Below, piece by piece: positions 21,901 through 27,900 of a DNA stretch of 64,000 nt. This DNA comes from Hirundichthys speculiger (taxonomy: Eukaryota > Chordata > Actinopteri > Beloniformes > Exocoetidae), in the NCBI GenBank assembly GCA_018398805.1, contig JAGFBZ010002340.1:1-64000 (forward strand). The letters are read 5' to 3'. The notes under the pieces are model-generated. The model saw nothing but the letters and a program-made list of their open reading frames with translations, had not been told where the DNA came from and made no database searches. Both the position numbers and the translations under genes were made by a program. Each line of letters begins with the position of its first letter. Within the stretch, counting starts at the first letter, position 1.

Positions 21901-24900
21901 CGCAGAGACATGACCAGTCAGACACGCGGGGACACGACCAGTCAGAGACGCAGGGACACGACCGGTCAGAGACGCAGGGACACGACCGGTCAGAGGCGCA
22001 GGGACAAGACCAGCCAGAGACGCGGGGACACGATTAGTCAGAGACCCGGGGACACGATTAGTCAGAGACGCAGAGACATGACCAGTCAGAGACGCGGGGA
22101 CACGACCAGTTAGAGACGCAGAGAGACGACCAGTCAGAGATGCAGGGACACGACCAGTTAGAGACGCAGAGAGACGACCAGTCAGAGACGCAGAGACACG
22201 ACCAGTCAGAGACACAGGGACACGACTGGTCAGAGACGCAGGGACACGACTGGTCAGAGACGCAGAGACATGACCAGTCAGAGATGCAGGGACACGACCA
22301 GTTAGAGACGCAGAGAGACGACCAGTCAGAGACGCAGAGACACGACCAGTCAGAGACGCAGAGGACACGACCAGTCAGACACGCGGGGACACGACCGGTC
22401 AGAGACGCAGGGACACGACCGGTCAGAGACGCGGGGACACGACCAGTTAGAGACGCAGAAGACACGACCAGTCAGAGACGCAGGGACACGACCGGTCAGA
22501 GACGCAGAGAGACGACGAGTCAGAGACGCAGGGACACGACCGTTCAGAGACGCAGGGACACGACTGGTCAGAGATGCAGGGGACACGACCAGTCAGCGAC
22601 ACTGGGACACGACCGGTCAGAGACGCAGGGACACAACCGGTCAGAGTTGCAGGGACACGATTAGTCAGAGACGCAGGGACACGATTAGTCAGAGACGTAG
22701 AGACACGACCGGTCAGAGACGCAGGGACATGACCAGTCAGAGACGCAGGGACACGACCGGTCAGAGACACAGGGACACGAATAGTCAGAGATGCAGGGAC
22801 ACGATTAGTCAGAGACGCAAGAACACGATTAGTCAGAGACGCAGGGGACATGACCAGTCAGAGACACAGGGACACGACCAGTCAGCAACACAGGGACACG
22901 AATAGTCAGAGATGCAGGGACACGATTAGTCAGAGACGCAGGGACATGACCGGTCAGAGACGCAGGGGACACGATTAGTCAGAGACGCAGGGACACGACC
23001 AGTCAGAGACGCAGGGACACGACCAGTCAGAGACAAAGGGGACACGACCAGTCAGAGACAAAGGGGACACGACCAGTCAGAGATGCAGAGACACAACCAG
23101 TCAGAGACGCAGGGACACGACCAGTCAGAGACGCAGGGGACACGACCGGTCAGAGACAAAGGGGACACGACCAGTCAGAGACAAAGGGGACACGACCAGT
23201 CAGAGATGCAGAGACACAACCAGTCAGAGACAAAGGGGACACGACCAGTCCGAGACGCAGAGGACACGACCAGTCAGAGACGCAGGGGGCCACAACCGGT
23301 CAGAGACGCGGGGACACGACCAGCCAGAGACGCAGGGACACGATTAGTCAGAGACCCAGGGACACGATTAGTCAGAGACGCAGAGACATGACCAGTCAGA
23401 GACACAGGGACACGACCGTTCAGAGACGCAGAGACACAACCGGTCAGGGACTCAGCAGAGATGGCCGGTCAGAGACGTGGGGACACGACCAGTCAGAGAC
23501 GCAGGGACACGACCAGTCAGAGACGCAGGGACACGACCAGTCAGAGACGTGGGGACACGACCAGTCAGAGACGCAGGGACACGACCAGTCAGAGACGCAG
23601 GTCTTTAGCTGGACCTCACCTGAGTCCACACCAACCTACCTGCCACTACTGTCAGCCATGCTGACTGGTGCGACACCCCAATGGGGTTCTCCGCCATGCA
23701 GGTGTACTCGCCCGCATCATCGGTGGTCACGCCCCTCAGAGTCAGAACCTCCAGGTGCTCATCGCTGATGTTCACACCTGCATCCTGAGGAAAAGAACTT
23801 TGGATAAATGCACTGTCCAGAGTCCCTGACCCGTCTGCAGTAAACTGGACAGGTACCTCCAGAACCAGGATGTAGGGGTGTCTGAGAGTAACTGGGCCTT
23901 TACCCTTCAGAACCAGGACGTAGGGGTGTCTGAGAGTAACTGGGCCTTTACCTTCAGAACCAGGACGTAGGGGTGTCTGAGAGTAACTGGGCCTTTACCT
24001 CCAGAACCAGGACGTAGGGGTGTCTGGGAGTAACTGGGCCTTTACCTTCAGAACCAGGACGTAGGGGTGTCTAAGAGTAACTGGGCCATTACCTTCAGAA
24101 CCAGGACGTAGGGGTGTCTGAGAGTAACTGGGCCTTTACCTTCAGAACCAGGACGTAGGGGTGTCTGGGAGTAACTGGGCCTTTACCTTCAGAACCAGGA
24201 CGTAGGGGTGTCTGAGAGTAACTGGGCCTTTACCTTCAGAACCAGGACGTAGGGGTGTCTGGGAGTAACTGGGCCTTTACCTTCAGAACCAGGACGTAGG
24301 GGTGTCTAAGAGTAACTGGGCCATTACCTTCAGAACCAGGACGTAGGGGTGTCTGGGAGTAACTGGGCCTTTACCTTCAGAACCAGGACGTAGGGGTGTC
24401 TAAGAGTAACTGGGCCATTACCTTCAGAACCAGGACGTAGGGGTGTCTAAGAGTAACTGGGCCTTTACCCTTCAGAACCAGGATGTAGGGGTGTCTGAGA
24501 GTAACTGGGCCATTACCTTCAGAACCAGGACGTAGGGGTGTCTGAGAGTAACTGGGCCATTACTTTCAGAACCAGGACGTAGGGGTGTCTGAGAGTAACT
24601 GGGCCTTTACCTCCAGAACCAGGACGTAGGGGTGTCTGAGAGTAACTGGGCCTTTACCCTTCAGAACCAGGATGTAGGCGTGTCTGAGAGTAACTGGGCC
24701 TTTACCTTCAGAACCAGGACGTAGGGGTGTCTAAGAGTAACTGGGCCATTACCTTCAGAACCAGGACGTAGGGGTGTCTGAGAGTAACTGGGCCATTACC
24801 TTCAGAACCAGGATGTAGGGGTGTCTGAGAGTAACTGGGCCATTACCTTCAGAACCAGGACGTAGGGGTGTCTGAGAGTAACTGGGCCATTACCTTCAGA

Positions 24901-27900
24901 ACCAGGACGTAGGGGTGTCTGAGAGTAACTGGGCCTTTACCCTTCAGAACCAGGACGTAGGGGTGCATGAGAGTAACTGGGCCTTTACCTTCAGAACCAG
25001 GACGTAGGGGTGTCTGAGAGTAACTGGGCCTTTACCCTTCAGAACCAGGACGTAGGGGTGTCTAAGAGTAACTGGGCCTTTACCTTCAGAACCAGGACAT
25101 AAGGGTGTCAGAGTAACTGGGCCATTACCTTCAGAACCAGGACGTAGGCGTGTCTGAGAGTAACTGGGCCTCTACCTTCAGAACCAGGACGTAGGGGTGT
25201 CTGAGAGTAACTGGGCCTTTACCCTTCAGAACCAGGACGTAGGGGTGTCTAAGAGTAACTGGGCCTTTACCTTCAGAACCAGGACATAAGGGTGTCAGAG
25301 TAACTGGGCCATTACCTTCAGAACCAGGACGTAGGCGTGTCTGAGAGTAACTGGGCCTCTACCTTCAGAACCAGGACGTAGGGGTGTCTGAGAGTAACTG
25401 GGCCTTTACCTTCAGAACCAGGACGCAGGGGTGACAGAGAGTAACTGGGCCACTACCTTCAGAACCAGGACGTAGGCATGTCTGAGAGTAACTGGGCCTT
25501 TACCTTCAGAACCATGACGTAGGTGTGTCTGAGAGTAACTGGGCCACTACTTTCAGAACCAGGACGTAGGCGTGTCTGAGAGTAACTGGGCCTTTACCTT
25601 CAGAACCAGGACGTAGGGGTGTCTGAGAGTAACTGGGCCTTTACCTTCAGAACCAGGACGTAGGGGTGTCTGAGAGTAACTGGGCCTTTACCTTCAGAAC
25701 CAGGACGTAGGGGTGTCTGAGAGTAACTGGGCCTTTACCTTCAGAACCAGGTCGTAGGGGTGTCTGAGAGTAATTGGGCCACTACCTTCAGAACCAGGAC
25801 GTAGGGGTGTCTGAGAGTAACTGGGCCTTTACCCTTCAGAACCAGGACGTAGGGGTGTCTGAGAGTAACTGGGCCTTTATCCTTCAGAACCAGGACGTAG
25901 CGGTGTCTGAGAGTAACTGGGCCATTACCTTCAGAACCAGGACGTAGGGGTGTCTGAGAGTAACTGGGCCTTTACCTTCAGAACCAGGACGTAGGGGTGT
26001 CCGTCCGGACCCTCCCTGCTGCCGTTCACGCTGATGTGCTTCAGCCAGCGGATGTGTGGTTTTGGGTTGCTGAAGACTCGGCATGCGAATTCCACATCGC
26101 CACCGACTGCTGCCGTCTGATTGGCCAGCAGGCCGGGCTGGAGGATGGGCCTGTTGGGAGGACGTTCTGGAGCAGACAGACACAGGTGAGACAGGTGGGC
26201 CGTAATCAGGTGTGTGTGATCTGAAGATGGTGGTTCTTACCAATGACATGCAGCGGGTAGGTGTGTCTGAGGCTGCCATGTTGGTTCTCCACCACGCAGG
26301 TGTAGTTACCTGTGTCGGAAGGAACCACTGACTCCATGATCAGGGTCCACAGGTGCTTCCGGACCTGGAACACGGAGGACAGGTGACCTTATGGGCGTTT
26401 GCCAGAATTGCAACCTTCCATCAGAATTTGTCATTTTCACAACAAAAGTGTGCAGTTCTGCTAAAATTTGGATTTTACAACAAAAACCTGTGATATGATG
26501 TCAAAAAGTTGTGATTTTATGAAAAAAAGTTATTTATGACAAAGAATTGTAATATTGAGGAATTTGTGATTTCACAACAAAAATTTGGGATATTGGGACA
26601 AAAAGTCGTAATTTATGCAACTGAATCATATTTTTAAATCAGAAGTAGGTGTTGGTGAGGGATTTCAATCCATGTGTGGAGATGATGTCTCCTGCTCCCT
26701 GAACCAGTCTTTGAGCCCGATTAATCCTGACATCGTCATCTTGGAATATGTCCGTGCCATCAGAGAAGAACAGATCCATTGATTGATGTCATTCAGTATA
26801 TTCAGGTAGTCAGCTGACCTCATTCTTTGAGCTCATACTGTTGCTGAACCTGGACCTGACCAACTGCAGCAACCCCAGATCAGAACACTGCCCCCACAGG
26901 CTGGTACAGGAAGCACTAGGCATGATGGGAGCATCACTCCAGAACAGGGTCAATCTGGACTCATCAGACCACATGACCTTCTTCCATTGATCCAGAGTCC
27001 AATCTTTATGCTCCCTTTTTTCCAGTTAGCCTCACTGATGAGTGGTTTTCTTAAGGCTGCACAGCTGTTCAGTCCCAATCCCTGGAGTTCCCTTTGCATC
27101 GTGGGTGTGGAAATGCTCTTACTCTCACTATCAAACAGCACTGAGTTCTACTGTCGTTTTTCTTCCATTTGATCTCACCAAACGTTTAATTGATCACCGA
27201 TCACGATCATTGAGGATTTTTTTCCTCCTGGAAGGCGATGGGTCCCCACTATCCTTCCAGTTTAATAATGCGTTGGACAGTTCTGAACCCAGTTCTGGTA
27301 GTTTCTTCAATCTCCTTAGATGTTTTCTCTGCTTGATGCCAATGATTTGAACCCTTCTCAAACAGACTAACATCTTTTCCATGACCACGGACGTGTGGTT
27401 GACATGGTTGTTTAGGACATGAGGAGCAACTCATTGCACCAGTTGGGGATCAATAACTAGTTTCCAGCTGAAAGATAATCACCCATGAAGTAATTATCCA
27501 ACAGGAGGCTAGTGAAATCCAGGTGGAGACTTTTTTTGACCAGGCCAGGACCTGCCCTGATCCGACGCACCTTAAACCCTCCAATCCGGTGGTCTTTCTG
27601 AAACTCCCTCCCGTTCTTGTACCAGTGCAGGCTGGGAACCGGGTTTCCGGTCGCTAGGCAGCGGAACCGAACCGTCTTGCTAGCGGGGACGGCGTGCAGC
27701 TGCTTCTCCATCTTGTCGGGCATCAGCCACTGCGGCGCCAGCGCTGGGTCGTGGGTAAGACATGGAAGCGTGAGCACAAATGACATCAGCCAACCAGAAC
27801 AAACACAGAAACAGGTGGGCGGGACTTACGGGGCAGTTTCTCACTACTCGCAGACAGCTCATTGGACGGTTTGTTCTCCTCTGATGACGACTCGTCTTCA

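What the first reader, a model, noticed from the sequence alone, without database searches (positions are those of the whole stretch)
23854..26000. An FGFR exon end and its 5' splice site repeated about 45 times in tandem
The 47-bp unit holds the last 26 bases of exon IIIa and the first 21 of the intron, so the donor AAG|GTAAAG occurs about 45 times in a row on the transcript strand. Every copy is a possible 5' splice site. Use of a later copy, or failure to splice, reads [14 protein letters not shown] and then TGA 15 codons past the true junction, giving a secreted receptor cut in Ig-III. Only the first donor gives a full receptor.
Basis: partly seen in the sequence, partly recalled or inferred. 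Interest (0 to 1): 0.88.

Follow-up and report, generated by a model that had tools for sequence, protein, structure and literature searches.

The report
Splice donor repeated 46 times
In a fish growth-factor-receptor gene the end of one exon and its splice signal have been copied head to tail 46 times, filling almost the whole intron; a similar case is known in a human gene, so this is a striking new example rather than a new kind of thing, and it could be used to test how cells choose between many near-equal splice sites.

Summary
On the minus strand of a teleost FGFR1 gene (fgfr1b), a 47-bp unit (26 exon bases plus 21 intron bases) stands in tandem at 23854-26001: 46 copies, 45 keeping GT at the junction, 18 reading exactly AAG|GTAAAG. 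Use of any later donor, or retention, meets the same TGA 15 codons past the first junction. The array is 2122 of the intron's 2191 nt. Seven of the 14 mapped introns carry no array and are 68-86 nt, so the array probably grew inside such a mini-intron. A second array in the window, in kctd9b, also starts at a splice donor (32 CAG|GT). Best account: a minisatellite seeded across a 5' splice site, neutral or mildly harmful; the first donor is mostly used, and mis-spliced RNA is destroyed by nonsense-mediated decay rather than making a secreted receptor. Human ABCA7 has a closely similar VNTR with measured second-donor use. Exon J has a net +1 frameshift as assembled and the protein evolves fast, so the gene may be decaying. 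Testable prediction: donor use at both ends of the array, not in the middle. No RNA or second individual could be examined.

The parts
23854..26001 (-). 47-bp tandem array, 46 junction-bearing copies; unit (transcript strand) = 26 nt of exon IIIa end + donor + 21 nt of intron
25976..26166 (-). fgfr1b exon D (IIIa, first half of Ig-III), 191 nt; its last 26 nt (25976-26001) belong to copy 1 of the array
23785..25975 (-). intron D-E (IIIa-IIIc), 2191 nt, 2122 of them array, 69 nt non-array; no room for a IIIb exon between IIIa and IIIc
25970..25978 (-). copy 1 donor AAG|GTAAAG, the donor that joins in frame to exon E
23851..23859 (-). copy 46 donor GAG|GTACCT, leaves an intron of only 72 nt before the acceptor
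23640..23784 (-). fgfr1b exon E (IIIc, second half of Ig-III), 145 nt, acceptor TTTTCCTCAG|GATGCAG
12844..27986 (-). fgfr1b gene as far as found (acid-box exon A, whose 5' end is not defined, to last exon O); further 5' exons not located
19412..19645 (-). fgfr1b exon J: 234 nt with a net +1 frameshift near an ACGG repeat and an 18-bp duplication; frame ends in the kinase domain as assembled
62023..62941 (-). second donor-seeded array, in kctd9b intron K3-K4: 20-bp unit GTCCAGAAACATCTGAGCAG beginning at the exon's donor CTGTCAG|GTACCA (last exon base 62942); 32 CAG|GT
56267..63382 (-). kctd9b exons K1-K7 (265 codons open when spliced; 5' end of K1 not confirmed, earlier exons lie outside the window or were not found)

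Best explanation
A minisatellite seeded across a 5' splice site and grown by slippage or unequal exchange inside what was probably a roughly 70-nt intron of fgfr1b. It is a by-product of a region very rich in minisatellites, not an evolved device. Shown by sequence: the array, the donors, the reading frames, the many mini-introns around it, a second donor-seeded array in kctd9b. Inferred: the first duplication at a 3-nt shared GAC (exon CGGACACCC and intron CAGACGGGT); most splicing uses copy 1 by exon definition (191-nt exon, 2.2-kb intron); a minority uses copy 2 or the last donors, which leave an intron of 72-214 nt; all such RNA carries an early stop and is mostly removed by nonsense-mediated decay, so the array lowers output somewhat rather than making a secreted receptor.
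For: Array abuts the exon and takes in its last 26 nt. 7 of 14 mapped fgfr1b introns have no array and are 68-86 nt; intron D-E without its array is 69 nt and the last donor leaves 72 nt. 37,629 of 64,000 bases (58.8%) lie in tandem arrays by my merged TRF intervals. The array is a mosaic: 22 distinct unit types among 45, copies 14-17 identical to 18-21, as expected of turnover. The donor nonamer varies more (25 of 405 cells) than the rest (38 of 1710), so the extra donors are not being kept. 14 of 14 mapped introns are GT-AG. In 66 of 120 FGFR homologues a pattern found the IIIa-IIIc junction and no residues between; 54 did not fit the pattern; of the first 20 of those, which were printed, 15 held WLKH and by eye also join directly, 5 lacked it. 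ABCA7: retention of one VNTR unit about 2% (PMC5954066 section 21).
Against: No RNA evidence. 28 of 45 later donors score as high as copy 1. In the survey of PMC9225289 most alternative 5' splice sites in every architecture class favoured the downstream site before strength was equalised (passage), which speaks for later copies. Copy 1 is not specially accessible in predicted RNA folding (11th of 46). If later donors were harmful one would expect more of them to be broken; copy 3 alone has lost GT. Not every intron fits the mini-intron picture: B-C, J-K and N-O have 1137, 940 and 1957 nt outside arrays.
Confidence: 0.62

Rival explanations
1. Array-set unproductive splicing: copy 1 and the copies near the acceptor (72-214 nt introns) share the work, or the array promotes skipping of exon E, so that receptor output falls through nonsense-mediated decay and allele length changes dose.
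For: Four donors (copies 43-46) leave introns under 250 nt, and splice sites closest across a short intron tend to pair (PMC9225289 abstract and passages). Full-strength donor copy 44 leaves 167 nt. In ABCA7 skipping of the exon after the VNTR rose strongly with VNTR length, and in 90% of one brain area's samples alternative transcripts together exceeded the canonical one (section 21); exon E here is 145 nt, so its skipping would break the frame.
Against: The two donors nearest the acceptor are weaker than copy 1 (4.4 and 5.7 against 7.9, recalled matrix); choosing copies 43-46 makes exons over 2 kb, which exon definition disfavours; in ABCA7 the retained-unit isoform did not change with VNTR length.
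Confidence: 0.18
2. The gene is a decaying copy; the array sits in a pseudogene and has no consequence for a receptor.
For: Net +1 frameshift in exon J; end branch 0.29 against a median of 0.08, and 14 of 269 otherwise invariant sites changed, the highest share of 31 rows; neighbour kctd9b is not fast (7 of 265 differences to Xenentodon, against 120 of 589 for fgfr1b).
Against: 14 of 14 mapped introns have canonical splice sites and no other stop or frameshift was seen in exons B-O; 255 of 269 invariant sites kept; an indel in a 4-base repeat could be an assembly error or a rare allele. Xenentodon fgfr1b is fast too.
Confidence: 0.12
3. Secreted soluble decoy receptor made on purpose by use of later donors or retention.
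For: Translation ends after [14 protein letters not shown]; Pfam still finds Ig I-set matches in that truncated product.
Against: Stop lies before 11 junctions (10 if retained), so decay is expected; Ig-III is cut in its middle and would probably not fold; no RNA evidence.
Confidence: 0.04
4. Assembly artefact: array length inflated or misplaced.
For: Tandem arrays are hard to assemble; one assembly only; the whole-genome search did not complete.
Against: Units differ (22 types of 45), so the array is not one unit copied by software; the flanks are clean and in frame on both sides; many other arrays of the same sort in the window.
Confidence: 0.03

Closest known systems
ABCA7 intron 18 VNTR (human; PMC5954066, passages and section 21 read)
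   Same: Tandem array that begins at an exon's splice donor and repeats it (25-bp unit whose first two bases are the donor GT; alleles of about 12 to 427 units); use of the second donor retains one unit, shifts the frame and makes an early stop subject to decay.
   Different: There the array starts at GT; here the unit also carries 26 coding bases of the exon end, so each copy rebuilds the exon side of the donor. Length variation and splicing were measured there, not here. ABCA7's length-dependent effect was skipping of the next exon.
Intron gain by tandem genomic duplication (PMC4974935, PMC2891723, PMC3443670; search listing only)
   Same: Tandem copying of a segment with AG|GT gives extra splice donors (recalled model).
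   Different: No new intron position: the junction is the one at which homologues' predicted proteins join, and the copies lie inside the existing intron.
FGFR1b receptor genes of teleosts
   Same: Homologous over the exons B-O searched; Ig and kinase domains; IIIa-IIIc junction.
   Different: No homologue above 72% identity among the 120 listed; intron content could not be compared.
Recursive splice sites (AG|GT with no exon between; recalled)
   Same: Each copy puts AG directly before GT after a pyrimidine-rich stretch.
   Different: AAG is a poor acceptor and 47-nt steps are too short for introns (recalled); untested.
Tandem-repeat-rich fish genomes, e.g. Nothobranchius furzeri (PMC2688266, search listing only)
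   Same: High tandem-repeat content by its title.
   Different: I did not read it; nothing seen on arrays across splice donors.

Membership tests
VNTR that includes a 5' splice site (ABCA7 type) | Tandem array touching the exon and repeating its donor | tested here: met
VNTR that includes a 5' splice site (ABCA7 type) | Copy number differs between individuals | not testable with these tools
   one assembly only
VNTR that includes a 5' splice site (ABCA7 type) | Later donors used in RNA | not testable with these tools
   no RNA data
FGFR1b | Closest relatives are FGFR1 proteins | tested here: met
FGFR1b | Ig I-set and tyrosine kinase domains | tested here: met
   (ectodomain piece, and kinase piece from exons K-O)
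FGFR1b | Open frame through the kinase domain | tested here: not met
   net +1 shift in exon J as assembled; may be an assembly error
Intron gain by tandem genomic duplication | New intron position created by the duplicate | tested here: not met
   intron sits at the exon junction inferred from homologues
Recursive splicing sites | Strong acceptor directly before GT | tested here: inconclusive
   AAG|GT in 33 of 46 copies; acceptor strength not scored
NMD-coupled unproductive splicing | Stop more than about 50 nt before the last exon junction | tested here: met
   stop in the first added unit, 11 junctions follow, 10 if retained; decay itself not tested

The most novel reading that the evidence does not exclude
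In this fish lineage 5' splice sites are recurrent seeds of minisatellites (two donor-seeded arrays among the 20 introns mapped here), and array length sets the splicing outcome: donors at both ends are used (first by exon definition, last few by intron definition), the middle is silent, and growth of the array switches an intron-defined mini-intron to an exon-defined one. Intron growth would then pass through a phase of unproductive splicing that can damage the gene.
Probability: 0.15. Interest if true: 0.8.

Novelty: new variant of a known kind. Interest (0 to 1): 0.52.

Why it matters
It is a natural competition of 46 donors, 29 of them equal by a recalled matrix, on one transcript with nearly fixed spacing, with one end favouring exon definition and the other intron definition. 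That makes a long-standing question, which of many equal 5' splice sites is chosen, readable from ordinary RNA-seq. It also suggests a route by which short fish introns grow, and two cases in 64 kb suggest that the genome may hold more.

Tried and rejected
Enrichment of donor-like motifs in arrays: 24 array consensus units that I chose, both strands (48 tests), 5 at p<0.05 against about 2.4 expected: too weak, not claimed. RNA accessibility of copy 1: not special. Naming the species: not possible. A tree puts fgfr1b with Cololabis and Xenentodon (100/97) and kctd9b is nearest Xenentodon (97%), so a beloniform or close kin is likely; against this, fgfr1b's raw differences to Xenentodon (120 of 589) are no fewer than to Sparus (120) or Scophthalmus (115), and its row has the longest branch. 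In-array acceptors (CTCTCAG) and 25-nt microexons: considered, not scored. Comparing the array in relatives: the sequence collections offered are prokaryotic, viral, plasmid and metagenomic, so no fish genome was searched. Papers: nine searches gave ABCA7 as the one precedent that I recognised; four papers were opened (PMC5954066, PMC9225289, PMC11090075, PMC8294118), the rest seen as listings, and the library is open-access only, so others may exist.

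Full report
What was checked. TRF gives one array at 23854-26001 with period 47, 45.6 copies and 93% matches. Read on the minus strand the unit is ACACCCCTACGTCCTGGTTCTGAAG|GTAAAGGCCCAGTTACTCTCAG. I count 46 junction-bearing copies; 45 of 46 have GT at the junction and copy 3 has GA. The 45 spacings are 47 nt (35), 48 nt (8) and 45 nt (2). Exact AAG|GTAAAG is found 18 times and AAG|GTAATG 11 times; the other 17 are AGG|GTAAAG (7), AAG|GTAGTG (2), AAG|GTAGAG (2), GAG|GTAAAG (2), and AAA|GTAGTG, AAA|GTAATG, GAG|GTACCT and the dead copy 3 (1 each). 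A pattern control gave 46 matches and none in 100 shuffles.

The gene. Protein comparison puts the flanking exons in FGFR1 (best PDB match FGFR1) and with teleost FGFR1 proteins at up to 72% identity among the 120 listed homologues, many of them named fgfr1b. I mapped exon ends from A to O; 14 of 14 introns between them are GT-AG. Exon D is IIIa (26166-25976, 191 nt) and exon E is IIIc (23784-23640, 145 nt). The intron between them is 2191 nt, of which 2122 are array and 69 are not, so there is no room for a IIIb exon between them. Pfam finds Ig I-set and tyrosine kinase domains in the pieces searched.

The setting. Seven of the 14 mapped introns carry no array and are 68-86 nt long. Three more (D-E, E-F, G-H) are 1.2 to 2.2 kb but hold only 69, 40 and 33 nt outside the arrays; L-M is 2291 of 2499 nt array. 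The remaining three (B-C, J-K, N-O) do not fit: they hold 1137, 940 and 1957 nt outside arrays. By my merged TRF intervals 37,629 of 64,000 bases are tandem arrays. So many of this gene's introns seem to be mini-introns, in several of which minisatellites have grown. The E-F array reaches the third intron base from the F acceptor, the J-K array the tenth from the K acceptor, and the G-H array begins at the 14th base after the G donor.

A second case. The neighbouring gene is kctd9b, open and in frame over 265 codons, 97% identical to Xenentodon. Its exon K3 ends CTGTCAG|GTACCAAGAACATCTGAGCAG|GTCCAGAAACATCTGAGCAG|GTCC and the 20-bp array starts right at the donor, with 32 CAG|GT in all; the first donor scores 4.0 and each of the 31 others 0.9 or less by the recalled matrix. 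Two of the 20 introns mapped in the two genes (14 and 6) thus have a donor-seeded array. In conserved kctd9b the later donors are all weaker than the first; in fast-evolving fgfr1b 28 of 45 tie with the first. With two cases this contrast is only a hint.

How it arose (inference). After the last copy the intron reads CAGACGGGT, and the exon at the start of the unit reads CGGACACCC; the unit join CAGACACCC fits a first duplication at the shared GAC. Copies then turned over: 22 unit types among 45 and a four-copy block (14-17) repeated as 18-21. The donor nonamer is more variable than the rest, 25 of 405 cells against 38 of 1710; these cells are not independent, because copying spreads variants. 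I see no sign of selection to keep the extra donors and little sign of selection to break them.

What splicing would do. Copy 1 joins in frame to exon E. Copies 2, 3, 4, 10, 23, 45 and 46 and retention were translated and all read [14 protein letters not shown] then stop; the stop precedes the second junction, so this holds for every later copy and for any array length. Eleven junctions follow (ten if the intron is retained), so decay is expected (established rule). The ABCA7 paper gives a measured parallel: a VNTR starting at the donor of exon 18, use of the second donor retaining one unit at about 2%, PTC-bearing transcripts rising with cycloheximide, and no change of that isoform with VNTR length (PMC5954066, section 21; I take the 2% to be the retained unit by the order of the sentence). 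The same section reports that skipping of the following exon rose with VNTR length and that in 90% of samples of one brain area the alternative transcripts together exceeded the canonical one, so such an array need not be harmless. Work on alternative sites says that the closest sites across a short intron pair under intron definition and the closest across the exon under exon definition, with a change near 250 nt; it also says that strength decides most cases and that in every class most events favoured the downstream donor before strength was equalised (PMC9225289, abstract and passages). Here copy 1 makes a 191-nt exon, while copies 43-46 leave introns of 214, 167, 119 and 72 nt but exons over 2 kb. 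Hence the two-ended prediction.

Is the gene sound? Exon J is 234 nt where the phases of its neighbours need 2 mod 3, a net +1 shift near an ACGG repeat; the frame then ends at the end of that exon. The window protein has the longest end branch, 0.29 against a median of 0.08 (31 rows; 0.40 against 0.09 in a quicker tree of 53 rows), and changes 14 of 269 otherwise invariant sites. kctd9b shows no such speed. Xenentodon fgfr1b is also somewhat fast. Decay of the gene and an indel error in assembly both remain open, and if the shift is real it matters more for receptor output than the donor array.

Verdict. The structure is real and odd; the functional reading of a secreted receptor is not supported. 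The kind is known from ABCA7; the variant, with coding bases in the unit, and two donor-seeded arrays in one window, is of use as a natural test of splice-site choice.

Noticed in passing
window 62023-62941, minus strand: kctd9b intron K3-K4 has a 20-bp array starting exactly at the splice donor, 32 CAG|GT; first donor stronger than the rest.
   Followed up: yes
window 19412-19645, minus strand: fgfr1b exon J has a net +1 frameshift near an ACGG repeat plus an 18-bp duplication: decay, allele or assembly error.
   Followed up: partly
window 20593-21175: 12-bp array reads CAGGTAAGG on the plus strand (26 exact copies), so the fgfr1b transcript carries CCTTACCTG repeats that resemble the U1 snRNA 5' end (recalled) and could pair with splice donors.
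   Followed up: no
window 21594-23601, minus strand: 24-bp array of intron E-F supplies the pyrimidine-rich stretch before the F acceptor and reaches the third intron base from the exon.
   Followed up: partly
window 58260-59049, minus strand: kctd9b intron K5-K6 array unit holds CAG|GTGAGG, a near-consensus donor, inside the intron.
   Followed up: no
window 51711-52500 and 61017-61975: Nearly the same 28-bp unit (GCAGTTCCTCTACCGACCACTAGAGGCC) forms two arrays in opposite orientation about 8.5 kb apart, perhaps spread by a mobile element.
   Followed up: no
window 593-12424: An 11.8-kb array of a 20-bp unit lies just downstream of fgfr1b.
   Followed up: no
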